Shown one piece after another: positions 39,224 through 46,939 of a stretch of 64,000 nt of DNA. The stretch covers positions 1-64,000 of the forward strand of contig JAIESW010000019.1 of assembly GCA_019745565.1 (NCBI GenBank). Direction: 5' to 3'. The stretch's first letter is position 1; each line of letters starts with the position of its first letter. This DNA comes from Burkholderiales bacterium. Its GTDB lineage: Bacteria > Pseudomonadota > Gammaproteobacteria > Burkholderiales > Ga0077523. Made by a program: the position numbers and the translations under genes. Under the pieces are notes generated by a model, which was given only the letters and a program-made list of their open reading frames with translations, searched no databases and was not told the DNA's origin.

Positions 39224-40090
39224 TTACGGAGTCGCAGCGTCTTCCTTGAAGCGCACGCGCACCAGACCGTCTTTGCAGGCGAGCAGAGCGCTGTGGCTGC
39301 CGATCCGATCGCCGCCGCGCAGCGCATCGGACCAGTCGCCGGCCACGCGTTCGGCAGCGACGACCCGCCGGCCGGCCACGCGCGGCAGCTGGAACGGATC
39401 GAAGACGAGCGAGCGGATCAGATCGACGCACTGGCTCGCGGTCATGGCGCGCCAGTCGACGATGTCGACGGCGGTGAAGTCGATGGACTTGCGATCGTAG
39501 TACGTCGCTTGCGAGGCATCCTGCGCATGGCGGCGCTCGGTGCCCGCGAGCACGTCCGGGAGGCTGCGCTTGAAGACCTCGTAGCCATGCGCGTGGTACA
39601 GGCCGTAGAGAGCGAACGCCGTCGTGAAGGGTGGGACGTCGAACAGCTGCTGATCGACGATGTCGCCGTCGTCGATGCCTGCCTCGAGCACGTGCAGCGT
39701 GACCCCACTCTCGGTCTCCCCGTTGCGCAGCGGCCACATGCTCGGGTAGCAACCGCGATAGCGCGGCAGCGGCGAGAAATGCAGGTTGTAGGCACGCGCG
39801 CCGCCGAGCTGCGCCGGCCGGATGATGCGGTCGTATTGCAGGCTGAATAGCACGTCGCCCGGTTCGAGCGTGAGCGCATCCACGGTCTCGAAGGCGGGCA
39901 CGCCCAGGCGATTGCATTGCGCCCGCAAGGAGGGTTCCCAACGATCGACGCCGGGATCGCCCTGGACGGCGACGGTTGCCAAATCCCACCGATCGGCCAG
40001 CAATGGCAGCACATCCGTGAGGTACCCGAGCGCGTTGCAGGCGATCGCTCCCTTGCCGCACACGGCCAGGCGCCGGCGGTCACGCCCCAT
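39224..40090 (-). CDS. Sugar N-formyltransferase
   Basis: The 288-residue protein starts MGRDRRRLAVCGKGAIACNA and has the formyltransferase core with an intact triad: Asn102 and His104 in YNLHFSPLPRYRGCYPSMWP, and Asp140 in GIDDGDIV. N10-formyl-THF would be the donor. Beside the ketoisomerase and aminotransferase it should formylate the 3-amino group, giving dTDP-Fuc3NFo or dTDP-Qui3NFo (inference). ATG 40090 overlaps the cytidylyltransferase stop by 11 bases. Confidence 0.8.
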   Translation of the reverse strand: MGRDRRRLAVCGKGAIACNALGYLTDVLPLLADRWDLATVAVQGDPGVDRWEPSLRAQCNRLGVPAFETVDALTLEPGDVLFSLQYDRIIRPAQLGGARAYNLHFSPLPRYRGCYPSMWPLRNGETESGVTLHVLEAGIDDGDIVDQQLFDVPPFTTAFALYGLYHAHGYEVFKRSLPDVLAGTERRHAQDASQATYYDRKSIDFTAVDIVDWRAMTASQCVDLIRSLVFDPFQLPRVAGRRVVAAERVAGDWSDALRGGDRIGSHSALLACKDGLVRVRFKEDAATP

Positions 40091-40862
40091 CCCGACCTCC
40101 CGGCTCGCGCCAGTCGTGGGTCCAGCGCTGCGGTGCTGCGAGCACCGATTCATAGCGCTGCAGATCTTCGGCCGAGTCCACCTCGCACCATCCCCCGTCC
40201 ACGGGCACCGCGCCGATGCGCTCGCCTCGATCGAGCATCCGGCGCAGCAGCCCGGTCATGTCCAGGCGATCGCGGCGCTCCGGCGGTTCCGCCTGCCAGG
40301 CGGCGTGGGCGCGTCGCCAGCCGTCCGGCGTGAAGCGAATCAATCCCATGTACTGCCCCTGCACCTGATCGAGCGTTTGCGGCCGTTCGCCGATGGCGAG
40401 CAGCCGGCCCTGGTCTTCGCGAAACGTCTCCGCGTCGCGCAGCGGATCGGCGAACCGGAGCTGCCACAGCGGCAGCCAGGACCGATCATAGGTGATGGCC
40501 ACGTCGTCCTGGGCCGCGAGGAGTTTCCGCACGACCGCAGGGCCATAGACGATGTCCGAGTACGAGACGATCGTCGTGCCGGCGTGCAGCCACTCGGCCG
40601 CGCAGGCGAGCGATGCCACCATGTTGGTGTCGGCCCAGCGCGGGTTGTGAAAGCGCACCGTCCCGAACGATCGCAGCAGCTCGGCGCGATAGCCGGTGAC
40701 GAGCGCGATGCGATCGATGCCGGCTGCGCGCAGCGCGGCCAGCTGCCACTCGAGCAACGGGCGGGCGGCCAGCGGCGTGAGGCACTTCGGCTGGTCGCGG
40801 GTGATCTCGCCCAGGCGTGAGCCGCGTCCCGCCGCGAGGATGATCGCGCTGGTGGGGTTCAT
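40080..40862 (-). CDS. CTP:phosphoglutamine cytidylyltransferase-like NTP transferase
   Basis: The 260-residue nucleotidyltransferase has the pyrophosphorylase signature LAAGRGSRLG (9-18), Lys26 in QPKCLTP and a metal-binding Asp103 in SYSDIVYGP. WADTNMVASLACAAEWL is typical of the cytidylyltransferases of the LicC/phosphonate kind. Position between a C26 hydrolase and a PEP-synthase-like kinase matches C. jejuni Cj1416, which makes CDP-L-glutamine from CTP and phosphoglutamine. The family is clear; the substrate is inferred from context. It starts in the hydrolase stop (ATGA). Confidence 0.75.
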   Translation of the reverse strand: MNPTSAIILAAGRGSRLGEITRDQPKCLTPLAARPLLEWQLAALRAAGIDRIALVTGYRAELLRSFGTVRFHNPRWADTNMVASLACAAEWLHAGTTIVSYSDIVYGPAVVRKLLAAQDDVAITYDRSWLPLWQLRFADPLRDAETFREDQGRLLAIGERPQTLDQVQGQYMGLIRFTPDGWRRAHAAWQAEPPERRDRLDMTGLLRRMLDRGERIGAVPVDGGWCEVDSAEDLQRYESVLAAPQRWTHDWREPGGRDGA

Positions 40863-41500
40863 GCGCCCACCCGCGCCGGTCCCACGCCCAGGGCCTCGCG
40901 CAGCAGCGCGCGATCCGCCGCCCGAAACGGCGTTTCACGTTCCGGATGCCACATCACGGCGGTCCAGCGCCGGGCCGGGCAAGCGAACGCTTCGACGCTG
41001 CCGTCGGGTGCGAACGCGAGCGGCGTGATCGGCTCCGGAATCGCGCCTCCCGGCAGACCCCAGCGATGGTACGAGTTCACGTCCGAGGTCATTGCGATCA
41101 TGGCGTTCGCGCTCCGGAGCGGATGACGCTGCGCCACGTGTCCCTCCACGGGTACCAGCGCACCGCCGAGGGTGTCCCACATGAGCTGAGCGCCGCGGCA
41201 GACGCCAAACACCGGCAGCTCTCGGGTACGACATAGCTCGAGCAGCGCGCGTTCGGTCCCGTCGCGGCGCTCGCTGGCCCCGAGGTCGTCGCCGCCGGTC
41301 AGGATCAGAGCGTTCAGCCCGAACGTTTCCAATGCCTGCACCGCACCACCGCCCGCGTTCGGCAAGGGCAGCCACGCGCCCTCGGGCACCGCCCAGGCGA
41401 GGAAGTCGGTCCACGCTGCGGCGACGGCATCGCGCAGTTCCCCGGTGCTGGGGTTGCGGACTTCGCGCATCGTGACGCCCATGCGCAACGGGTTCTTCAT
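40859..41500 (-). CDS. Gamma-glutamyl-CDP-amidate hydrolase-like (peptidase C26)
   Basis: The 213-residue class I glutamine-amidotransferase fold has nucleophile Cys101 in VFGVCRGAQLMWD and the partner His185 with Glu187 in MWHPERETPF. It resembles the gamma-glutamyl hydrolase/PuuD family but is shorter. In C. jejuni the equivalent Cj1417 releases glutamate from CDP-L-glutamine, leaving cytidine diphosphoramidate. No putrescine or GABA genes are near. It overlaps both neighbours by 4 bases. Confidence 0.77.
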   Translation of the reverse strand: MKNPLRMGVTMREVRNPSTGELRDAVAAAWTDFLAWAVPEGAWLPLPNAGGGAVQALETFGLNALILTGGDDLGASERRDGTERALLELCRTRELPVFGVCRGAQLMWDTLGGALVPVEGHVAQRHPLRSANAMIAMTSDVNSYHRWGLPGGAIPEPITPLAFAPDGSVEAFACPARRWTAVMWHPERETPFRAADRALLREALGVGPARVGA

Positions 41501-45861: not shown

Positions 45862-46418
45862 CAGGCTGTCTCCACCGCCGCCGCCAGGGCAGTCACGTGC
45901 CGCAGTTCATCGCGCTGCAATCGGGCCGCGACGGAACGCCATGCGGCGGGCACCGCATCCCGGTGCGCCCCGAGGATGTCGTTCAGCTTGAGCAGCGCGT
46001 TGAGACACGGCAGACGCTGCGAGGTGCGATAGGCGCGCTCCAGGAGTTCGCCGAAGACCACGTACCGCGGCAATACCCGGAAATCCCCGCGATCCACGGC
46101 ACGCATCGCGTTGTCGTAGTCACCATAGATGCGCTTCGTGACTTCGAAGCGCTGCACGAGCCGTGCGACCACGCGCAGGGCGTCCTCGTGATCGTCGCGC
46201 TCGAGGCGCGTCATCGTGTCCGCGAACAATCGGCACGCCCGATCGGTGCTCGCCATGCCGGCGTCCGGCGCAACCGCAGTCGCATCGAACCACGCCGCTG
46301 CCGCCAGGCGCTGCGCCCGCCAGGCCTCGAGGAATGCCTGACCGCCGAACGTGGAGTAGAAGTAGGTGTGCGGCTGTGCGAGCAGATCCCCCTGCGCATA
46401 GGTGTAGGCAATGCTCAC
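45861..46418 (-). CDS. Unrecognised 185-residue island protein
   Basis: I do not recognise this family. The protein is mostly helical by appearance, has no signal peptide or membrane segment, and contains aromatic- and Arg-rich stretches (IAYTYAQGDLLAQPHTYFY; RFEVTKRIYGDYDNAMRAVD; LPCLNALLKLNDILGAHRD). It is translationally tied to both neighbours: its start overlaps the CysC-like stop (ATGA) and its stop overlaps the next start by 1 base. The tight coupling suggests a role in the same pathway, perhaps as an extra enzyme or scaffold. Confidence 0.6.
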   Translation of the reverse strand: MSIAYTYAQGDLLAQPHTYFYSTFGGQAFLEAWRAQRLAAAAWFDATAVAPDAGMASTDRACRLFADTMTRLERDDHEDALRVVARLVQRFEVTKRIYGDYDNAMRAVDRGDFRVLPRYVVFGELLERAYRTSQRLPCLNALLKLNDILGAHRDAVPAAWRSVAARLQRDELRHVTALAAAVETA

Positions 46419-46939
46419 GGCTGCACGCTCCCGGCCTTGCGCAGCACTTCGGCGGCCAGGGCCTCGACGTCCGGCAACGGCCCGGCGGCGTCGAGAGTCA
46501 GGTCCGGCGCCGTCGGTTCAGGAAATGGCAGATCGACCCCGGCCACCTGGTGCCGCTCGCCCCTCAGGGCAGGCCCGTAGAGCCCCTTCGTGTCGCGGGC
46601 CGCGAGTACCTCGACCGGGGCCTTCAGGTAGATCTCGAAATAGCGCGAGAAGCGCCGGCGGTTACCGGCCCGCATCTCGGGGAACAGCGACAGGATGCAG
46701 CAGACGACATTGATCCCCTGCCCGTCCAGCCATTCGCACAGCGCTGTCACGCGCTCGGCGTTGAGACGGCGACCCGCTATCGTGTAGGCCGCGTCGCTAC
46801 CATCGTGGGCGAACAGGCGCCGCACTTCGTCGCCGTCCACCAGGACGGTATTGGGGGCCGCGCCGCGCCATTGCGCGGCCAACGCCCGACCCAGCGTGGT
46901 CTTGCCGCTGCCGGACAGGCCGATGATCCAGATCACCAT
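46415..46939 (-). CDS. Cytidine-diphosphoramidate kinase-like (CysC/APS-kinase family)
   Basis: The 174-residue kinase has P-loop GLSGSGKTT (7-15), DGDEVRRLF (35-43), the conserved Ser84 in INVVCCILSLFPEMR, and KGLYGPA (118-124). It is a CysC homologue, but no sulfate-assimilation gene lies nearby. INVVCxILSxFPE followed by NR is, as I recall it, closer to Cj1415 than to E. coli CysC. Cj1415 phosphorylates the 3'-OH of cytidine diphosphoramidate. It starts 5 bases after the giant transferase gene. Confidence 0.78.
   Translation of the reverse strand: MVIWIIGLSGSGKTTLGRALAAQWRGAAPNTVLVDGDEVRRLFAHDGSDAAYTIAGRRLNAERVTALCEWLDGQGINVVCCILSLFPEMRAGNRRRFSRYFEIYLKAPVEVLAARDTKGLYGPALRGERHQVAGVDLPFPEPTAPDLTLDAAGPLPDVEALAAEVLRKAGSVQP

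What the first reader, a model, noticed from the sequence alone, without database searches (positions are those of the whole stretch)
40080..46939. Complete phosphoramidate-donor pathway outside Campylobacter, beside flagellin
Four genes encode the families that in C. jejuni make the activated phosphoramidate: PEP-synthase-like L-glutamine kinase (41497-43914), phosphoglutamine cytidylyltransferase (40080-40862), C26-type CDP-glutamine hydrolase (40859-41500) and CysC-like CDP-phosphoramidate kinase (46415-46939). Each alone could be misread as PEP synthase, a sugar NTP transferase, gamma-glutamyl-GABA hydrolase or APS kinase. Together, in one coupled operon with a methyltransferase and no sulfur or GABA genes, they define the pathway. 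The betaproteobacterial flagellar setting looks new to me.
Basis: partly seen in the sequence, partly recalled or inferred. Interest (0 to 1): 0.95.

Follow-up and report, generated by a model that had tools for sequence, protein, structure and literature searches.

The report
Phosphoramidate island beside flagellin
Next to its flagellin gene a bacterium carries a gene set predicted to make an activated phosphorus-nitrogen (phosphoramidate) group and likely to attach it to sugars on the flagellum, together with two partner genes of unknown role that sit beside the same set in many unrelated bacteria.

Summary
The four genes are real. The kinase scores 853.8 bits to its family model and at most 42.2 to any PEP-synthase model; the CysC-like kinase falls outside six housekeeping APS kinases; the C26 hydrolase's best curated model is the right one but under its cut-off; the four lie together in 61 of 80 named loci chosen by the kinase. 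"Outside Campylobacter" is not rare. New here: (1) an orphan protein (45861-46418) and a formyltransferase-fold protein (45115-45861, catalytic Asn replaced by His) occur as a pair in 36 of 80 loci, sometimes fused; in 273 other class genomes the latter is strong only in the one that holds the kinase. (2) The adjacent TPR-GT41-GT61 protein ends in a TagF-like domain, the predicted phosphoramidyl transferase. A sister species with 89% identical flagellin lacks the kinase genome-wide, and its island lacks this domain and the donor genes except a truncated relic. (3) Flagellin lies within 10 kb of the kinase in 8 of 63 genomes (0.87 expected). Best reading: a flagellin glycan carrying (methyl)phosphoramidate. 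No chemistry was tested. New variant of a known pathway.

The parts
35931..37415 (-). flagellin (494 aa), likely acceptor protein
   Evidence: flagellin ORF; 90% and 89% identical flagellins in two congeners
37648..38781 (-). DegT/DnrJ aminotransferase, FdtB-like (start not fixed)
   Evidence: PF01041 403.5 bits
38775..39200 (-). FdtA-type ketoisomerase (start not fixed)
   Evidence: PF05523 182.8 bits
39224..40153 (-). FMT1, sugar N-formyltransferase-like with canonical N-L-H motif
   Evidence: PF00551; alignment with FMT2; start not fixed, it overlaps the next gene by 74 bases as drawn
40080..40862 (-). predicted phosphoglutamine cytidylyltransferase (Cj1416-type)
   Evidence: PF12804 79.1 bits; best solved relative CTP:phosphocholine cytidylyltransferase 1jyk; present in 67 of 80 loci
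40859..41500 (-). predicted gamma-glutamyl-CDP-amidate hydrolase (Cj1417-type), Cys101-His185-Glu187
   Evidence: NF045546 3.7e-27 but under cut-off; the three residues invariant in 68 rows
41497..43914 (-). predicted L-glutamine kinase (Cj1418-type), His757
   Evidence: NF004508 853.8 bits, over cut-off
43904..45118 (-). class I SAM methyltransferase with ~215-aa N-terminal part, candidate O-methylation step
   Evidence: PF13649/PF13489
45115..45861 (-). FMT2, formyltransferase-fold protein, catalytic Asn replaced by His123 (His125, Asp160 kept)
45861..46418 (-). GeneJ, orphan helical protein, partner of FMT2
   Evidence: no Pfam/NCBIfam match at E<=0.01; in 36 of 80 loci, with FMT2 and a CysC-like gene in 36 of 36; helices in the model of a fused relative
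46415..46939 (-). predicted CDP-phosphoramidate 3'-kinase (Cj1415-type, CysC-like)
   Evidence: NF004041 over cut-off; tree and motifs
46945..51726 (-). 1593-aa protein TPR - GT41 - GT61 - TagF-like (PF04464)
   Evidence: Pfam
46948..48021 (-). TagF-like domain (residues 1236-1593), predicted phosphoramidyl transferase
51987..54020 (-). TPR - GT41 protein, likely protein O-glycosyltransferase
   Evidence: PF13844 261.5 bits

Best explanation
The island holds a glutamine-kinase-family gene, a nucleotidyltransferase, a C26 hydrolase and a CysC-like kinase, the set known from the Campylobacter phosphoramidate-donor pathway, plus a TagF-like domain fused to a TPR-GT41-GT61 protein, all beside flagellin, and most likely it decorates the flagellin glycan with a phosphoramidate group. 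Predicted steps, none assayed: the kinase phosphorylates the amide N of L-glutamine with ATP; the cytidylyltransferase makes CDP-glutamine; the C26 hydrolase removes glutamate and leaves CDP-NH2; the CysC-like kinase adds a 3'-phosphate. The TagF-like domain would then move the terminal phosphoramidate from the 3'-phospho-CDP donor to a sugar hydroxyl, as TagF moves glycerol-phosphate from CDP-glycerol. The acceptor sugar would be built on flagellin by the two TPR-GT41 proteins and GT61, probably with a formamido-deoxyhexose (FdtA, DegT, FMT1). The methyltransferase would O-methylate. GeneJ-FMT2 would form one complex acting on the nucleotide-linked donor or at transfer; its exact reaction is the weakest step.
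For: Families and scores. Four genes together in 61 of 80 loci; GeneJ and FMT2 together in 36 of 80, a CysC-like gene in 36 of 36 of those. CysC-GeneJ fusion in L066; GeneJ-FMT2 fusion in 7 loci and in G106. Class draw of 274 genomes, the window's own included: FMT2 over 250 bits only in the own genome and G106, the same two that are over the kinase cut-off, and in G106 in the same gene set; apart from the own genome this rests on one genome of 273. TagF-like domain; it is the gene directly before the CysC-like one, alone or fused, in 20 loci. Genus comparison: G281 has the whole island; sister G282 (flagellin 89%) has TPR-GT41, GT41-GT61, FdtA and DegT but no kinase in its genome, and in the 26 kb fetched no other donor gene but a truncated nucleotidyltransferase relic and no TagF-like domain; five further congeners have flagellin beside the housekeeping flank with no island; four were not informative. 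Flagellin within 10 kb in 8 of 63 genomes, 0.87 expected. A TPR-GT-B enzyme that glycosylates flagellin: FlmG (PMC7591256, passages). Pathway steps: PMC11800397 passages.
Against: No activity, glycan or 31P signal was measured. The C26 protein is under the NCBIfam cut-off (95.7 against 250) and the nucleotidyltransferase has no dedicated model. 55 of 63 genomes have no flagellin within 10 kb of the kinase (12 of the 63 have no flagellin match at all). In Pseudomonas L025 the seven genes stand without flagellin or glycan genes in 22 kb, so other acceptors exist. The TagF-like domain was not found in 59 of 80 loci nor in 16 kb around the G106 set, so other transferases must serve there. Cj1421/Cj1422 were not in hand for comparison. 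Sister G282 differs in the whole island (TPR proteins 40-45% identical), so two island versions are compared, not a clean deletion.
Confidence: 0.58

Rival explanations
1. The donor is made as above but the acceptor is LPS, capsule or another surface glycan, and the place beside flagellin is only a convenient glycosylation hot spot.
For: The Pseudomonas seven-gene set lies away from flagellin: other contigs in four and 310 kb off in a fifth of five Pseudomonas genomes compared (G340, G342, G343, G346, G347); phosphoramidate is known in LPS of Xanthomonas campestris and Shewanella (PMC3907429, passages); 55 of 63 genomes lack flagellin within 10 kb.
Against: In the window the TagF-like domain is in one protein with TPR and GT41 domains, a layout like the flagellin O-glycosyltransferase FlmG; the island lies exactly between flagellin and the housekeeping flank and is absent in five congeners; proximity to flagellin exceeds expectation.
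Confidence: 0.24
2. GeneJ-FMT2, not the TagF-like domain, performs the transfer, or FMT2 formylates the phosphoramidate nitrogen so that the final group is an N-formyl phosphoramidate.
For: GeneJ-FMT2 accompany the donor genes more often (36 of 80) than the TagF-like domain (21 of 80) and are fused or adjacent to the donor kinase; formyltransferase fold with His-His-Asp in place of Asn-His-Asp; sugar N-formyltransferases act on nucleotide-linked amines (established for the family, recalled).
Against: 44 of 80 loci lack the pair (some are cut by contig ends); the replaced Asn may mean lost formyl transfer; no nucleotide-binding test made.
Confidence: 0.12
3. The four enzymes make a related but different nucleotide-activated product (another amide or phosphate group) in this lineage.
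For: C26 protein under cut-off; I saw no assay outside Campylobacter in the papers found; the nucleotidyltransferase has no dedicated model.
Against: Catalytic Cys/His/Glu of the C26 protein and His757 of the kinase are invariant in 68 and 79 rows; the genes are inherited together.
Confidence: 0.05
4. Housekeeping misreads: PEP synthase, sugar nucleotidyltransferase, PuuD-like hydrolase and APS kinase.
For: Generic Pfam domains; RefSeq plasmid annotations use such names.
Against: Model scores, missing PEP C-terminal domain, CysC tree, joint occurrence.
Confidence: 0.01

Closest known systems
Campylobacter jejuni Cj1415-Cj1418 pathway to CDP-phosphoramidate 3'-phosphate (capsule methyl phosphoramidate)
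   Same: the same four kinds of enzyme in one gene set (pathway from PMC11800397 passages); methyltransferase nearby
   Different: flagellin setting; GeneJ-FMT2 pair; TagF-like domain as predicted transferase (comparison with Cj1415-Cj1418, Cj1421 and Cj1422 sequences not run)
TagF / TarL CDP-alditol phosphotransferases (PF04464)
   Different: 12-15% identity; own subfamily beside the CysC-like kinase; fused to TPR-GT41-GT61
Sugar and Met-tRNA N-formyltransferases (ArnA, Fmt, FdtF)
   Same: fold and His, Asp of the catalytic triad
   Different: catalytic Asn is His in all 18 rows aligned; C-terminal HPxLKH motif
FlmG-type TPR flagellin O-glycosyltransferases
   Same: TPR plus GT-B transferase
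   Different: here GT61 and TagF-like domains are added in the same chain; FlmG sequence not compared
Pseudomonas aeruginosa b-type flagellin glycan
   Same: a phosphorus-containing cap (209 Da with a phosphate moiety) on a flagellin sugar (PMC3958885 passages)
   Different: no link to phosphoramidate genes tested here

Membership tests
Phosphoramidate-donor pathway (Cj1415-Cj1418) | L-glutamine kinase family protein over curated cut-off | tested here: met
   NF004508 853.8 against 501; 88% identical homologue named glutamine kinase by JGI. NCBIfam calls the model hypothetical protein; that it contains Cj1418 is recalled, not tested
Phosphoramidate-donor pathway (Cj1415-Cj1418) | gamma-glutamyl-CDP-amidate hydrolase over curated cut-off | tested here: not met
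   best model but 95.7 against 250; three other cassette C26 proteins also 94.6-99.1
Phosphoramidate-donor pathway (Cj1415-Cj1418) | CysC-like kinase distinct from APS kinases | tested here: met
   57 of 60 cassette rows incl. window in one clade apart from 6 housekeeping rows, 100/93; SP[YFL] of the six is S-[LIV]-F in at least 43 of 59 cassette rows
Phosphoramidate-donor pathway (Cj1415-Cj1418) | phosphoglutamine cytidylyltransferase | tested here: inconclusive
   NTP-transferase family, no dedicated model, no tree; in 67 of 80 loci
Phosphoramidate-donor pathway (Cj1415-Cj1418) | all four genes in one gene set | tested here: met
   window; 61 of 80 loci
Phosphoramidate-donor pathway (Cj1415-Cj1418) | Cj1421/Cj1422-type transferase | not tested
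   Campylobacter sequences not in hand
Phosphoramidate-donor pathway (Cj1415-Cj1418) | enzyme activities and product | not testable with these tools
   needs assay
PEP synthase | PEP/pyruvate-binding C-terminal domain and model score | tested here: not met
   no such Pfam domain; TIGR01418 34.9 against 739.75, best PEP-synthase model 42.2
N-formyltransferase (FMT2) | Asn-His-Asp catalytic triad | tested here: not met
   Asn is His in 18 of 18 rows
PF04464 CDP-glycerol glycerophosphotransferase family (TagF-like domain) | Pfam gathering score and fold | tested here: met
   33.7 against 22.1. No solved chain was matched by sequence profile at E<=0.01
Flagellin glycosylation island | glycosyltransferases inserted at the flagellin locus | tested here: met
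   TPR-GT41 proteins beside flagellin; no island in five congeners
Flagellin glycosylation island | glycan on flagellin | not testable with these tools
   needs mass spectrometry

The most novel reading that the evidence does not exclude
A second, widespread branch of phosphoramidate biology: GeneJ and the His-His-Asp formyltransferase-fold protein form a dedicated complex that converts or hands on 3'-phospho-CDP-NH2 (for instance to an N-formyl phosphoramidate), and TagF-like enzymes are phosphoramidyl transferases, here putting phosphoramidate on flagellin, the first phosphorus-nitrogen cap on a protein glycan that I know of.
Probability: 0.22. Interest if true: 0.87.

Novelty: new variant of a known kind. 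Interest (0 to 1): 0.64.

Why it matters
Phosphoramidate decoration is described in Campylobacter capsule, where its loss changes host-cell invasion (PMC3907429, passages) and its transferase bears on serum resistance (PMC13317227, passages). Here the donor genes appear in bacteria of many phyla, two uncharacterised partner families come with them, and a concrete transferase candidate appears whose reaction is directly testable. It also questions database names (PEP-utilizing enzyme, gamma-glutamyl-GABA hydrolase, adenylyl-sulfate kinase, phosphocholine cytidylyltransferase) for many proteins, and predicts a phosphorus-nitrogen cap on a flagellin glycan.

Tried and rejected
Rejected: housekeeping readings of the kinase and the CysC-like protein, and by model ranking of the C26 protein.

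Led nowhere: TagF-like and kinase profiles in viral contigs (no relative); FMT2 and GeneJ in plasmids (no match); TagF-like domain in plasmids (3 E. coli records at 31-32% identity over 65-68%, none over 80% cover); profile of the TagF-like domain against solved sequences (none). GeneJ has no listed structural match of its own: the 50 rows shown are formyltransferase-type proteins, and GeneJ was not folded alone. Direct comparison with Cj1415-Cj1418, Cj1421 and Cj1422 was not possible: no Campylobacter sequence was fetched. Two primary papers on the kinases were not held. A paper on a clostridial flagellar glycosylation island that matched 'phosphoramidate' has the word once, in its reference list.

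Dropped rows: flagellin distances used 63 of 80 loci (17 not sent: L011-L013, L032, L034, L039, L043, L044, L046, L052, L055, L062, L063, L071, L077, L079, L083). Matches counted include weak or possibly hook-associated ones: G338 (73 bits, within 35 kb), G354 (82 bits) and G368 (26.6 bits), the last two among the 8 within 10 kb; the expectation used rounded genome sizes and ignored contig ends, and related genomes (e.g. Methylotenera) are not independent. CysC tree: 18 housekeeping domain matches from 17 loci; 6 rows passed the length filter of 130-230. Three of 59 cassette-locus CysC rows (two of L055, one of L035) fall outside the cassette clade. One search gave 60, 35 and 32 where the cleaner one search gave 61, 36 and 37; the GeneJ model was contaminated by fusions. 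The TagF-like model did not match the RefSeq-named CDP-glycerol glycerophosphotransferase of L129. Of 11 congeners, G274 (contig end), G277 (flagellin in pieces, region not fetched), G283 and G284 (no flagellin match) gave no information on the site.

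
Full report
Observation. The - strand from 54020 to 35931 reads TPR-GT41, TPR-GT41-GT61-TagF-like, CysC-like, GeneJ, FMT2, methyltransferase, glutamine-kinase family, C26 hydrolase, nucleotidyltransferase, FMT1, FdtA, DegT, flagellin. The six junctions from the CysC-like gene to the nucleotidyltransferase overlap by 1-11 bases, and the gene before them ends 5 bases away. On the far side lie a phosphorylase-superfamily gene (called mtnP below), a phosphoribosyltransferase, a nucleotidyl transferase, ligA, zipA and smc; on the near side flagellin and fliD.

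The four donor genes. The kinase scores 853.8 bits to NF004508 (cut-off 501), 34.9 to TIGR01418 and at most 42.2 to any PEP-synthase model; it has PPDK_N at the N terminus, the phosphohistidine domain at the C terminus and no PEP-utilising C-terminal domain. Its invariant His757 (79 rows) lies in the segment that aligns with the phosphohistidine segment of PEP synthase 2ols. The C26 protein's best NCBIfam model is gamma-glutamyl-CDP-amidate hydrolase (95.7 bits, under the cut-off of 250); Cys101, His185 and Glu187 are invariant in 68 rows. The CysC-like kinase passes NF004041 and not apsK. In a tree of 66 rows it and 56 of 59 cassette rows form one clade apart from six housekeeping CysC rows (100/93); the motif SP[YFL] of the six is S-[LIV]-F in at least 43 of the 59. 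It is the only match over 25 bits to APS kinase in the window's genome, 92.6% complete. C. [quoted passage not shown]

Distribution. A protein search gave 4255 matches at E<=0.001 among 7994 candidates (capped). Even so the set is patchy: over the cut-off in 2 of 274 class genomes, the window's own being one, and in 2 of 12 genomes of the window's genus, again with its own. Of the 80 loci, 67 hold the nucleotidyltransferase, 69 the hydrolase, 66 the CysC-like kinase and 61 all four; some loci are cut by contig ends, so these are lower bounds.

Two partner families. GeneJ has no Pfam or NCBIfam match; 24 proteins matched it at E<=0.001 among 1404 candidates, most without a name. GeneJ and FMT2 are found together in 36 of 80 loci, never GeneJ without FMT2, once FMT2 without GeneJ (L012, where FMT2 begins 0.2 kb from the contig end), and a CysC-like gene is there in 36 of 36. 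They are fused to each other in seven loci, and GeneJ is fused to the CysC-like kinase in L066. The 80 loci were chosen by the kinase, so a test without that choice was made: in a draw of 274 class genomes, which includes the window's own, FMT2 exceeds 250 bits in the own genome and G106, the same two that are over the kinase cut-off; one further genome has 69.5 bits. Leaving the own genome out, that is one genome of 273. In G106 the order is kinase, C26, nucleotidyltransferase, CysC-like, GeneJ-FMT2 in one reading frame, with no TagF-like match in the 16 kb fetched. FMT2 has the formyltransferase fold (top match ArnA 5j63, 2.4e-13), but the catalytic Asn is His in 18 of 18 rows while His and Asp stay; FMT1 of the same island keeps the canonical N-L-H. 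The model of the L004 GeneJ-FMT2 fusion has pLDDT 88.7 and pTM 0.63, so the placing of the two halves is unsure.

Genus comparison. G281 carries the same island (70-97% protein identity over the island genes). G282, whose flagellin is 89% identical and whose housekeeping-side genes are 84-96% identical, has TPR-GT41, a GT41-GT61 protein matching residues 23-1214 only, FdtA (90%) and DegT (82%), but no kinase in the genome (91% complete) and, in the 26 kb fetched, no CysC-like, GeneJ, FMT2, methyltransferase, C26 or TagF-like match. It keeps a 5'-truncated nucleotidyltransferase relic (54%) elsewhere in the island, and a hexapeptide-repeat acyltransferase-like frame, read by eye, where FMT1 would be. 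Five more congeners have flagellin next to the mtnP side with no island; four gave no information. So the TagF-like domain and the donor genes are missing together, though the island differs as a whole.

Flagellin link. In the 63 genomes searched (of 80 loci), 51 have flagellin-type matches; the kinase lies within 10 kb of one in 8 (0.87 expected) and within 35 kb in 12 (2.79 expected). This is enrichment, not a rule: 55 of 63 have none within 10 kb. In Pseudomonas L025 the seven genes stand without flagellin or glycan genes in 22 kb; L024 and L030 show the same gene order. TPR plus GT-B protein FlmG glycosylates flagellin in Caulobacter (PMC7591256, passages), and a phosphate-bearing flagellin cap is known in P. 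aeruginosa (PMC3958885, passages).

Novelty. Phosphoramidate without methyl is known in LPS of Xanthomonas and Shewanella (PMC3907429, passages). My searches of the open-access library showed no paper that joins phosphoramidate genes to a flagellin glycan, and none on a phosphoramidate transferase of the TagF type (listings; some lists were longer than the rows shown, and subscription papers are largely missing). GeneJ-FMT2 was not searched for in print by name, as it has none. Filed as a new variant of a known pathway. All reactions, the acceptor and the role of GeneJ-FMT2 are inferred.

Noticed in passing
L025 about 7.1-13.8 kb (same order in L024, L030): Pseudomonas carry a stand-alone seven-gene set (TagF-like, CysC-like, GeneJ, FMT2, kinase, C26, nucleotidyltransferase); in L025 it lies between genes that read by eye as amtB/glnK-like and comM-like, with no glycan or flagellin genes in the 22 kb.
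   Followed up: partly
L120:10570-11310 and 17070-17816 (congener G282): A 5'-truncated cytidylyltransferase relic beside a peptide-deformylase-like end, and a hexapeptide acyltransferase-like frame in place of FMT1, both read by eye: the sister island may make an acetamido instead of a formamido sugar.
   Followed up: partly
L128 (Azospirillum lipoferum plasmid), L072:16036-16995, L076:5201-6955: Cassettes without a TagF-like match have sulfotransferase-type or sulfatase-type genes near, and in Azospirillum the CysC-like domain ends an 846-aa protein: possible other transferases for a 3'-phospho donor.
   Followed up: partly
families of L059:15652-16449 and L029:13274-14104: Two other class I methyltransferase families occur in about 11 and 19 of the 80 loci by rough clustering, so the methylation step seems to have been recruited several times.
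   Followed up: partly
MT837632.1:676-3006 (phage collection): A 9.5 kb unannotated record named Bacteriophage sp. from human stool encodes a 31% identical kinase homologue; may be bacterial DNA.
   Followed up: no
RefSeq/PLSDB plasmid records H4-H17: 13 of 14 plasmid kinase homologues are named PEP-utilizing enzyme, PEP/pyruvate-binding or pyruvate phosphate dikinase, and the neighbours seen in two records gamma-glutamyl-GABA hydrolase family and phosphocholine cytidylyltransferase family: likely a systematic misnaming.
   Followed up: partly
window 27061-29472: An 803-aa frame on the - strand between flagellar genes has no Pfam match at E<=0.001.
   Followed up: no
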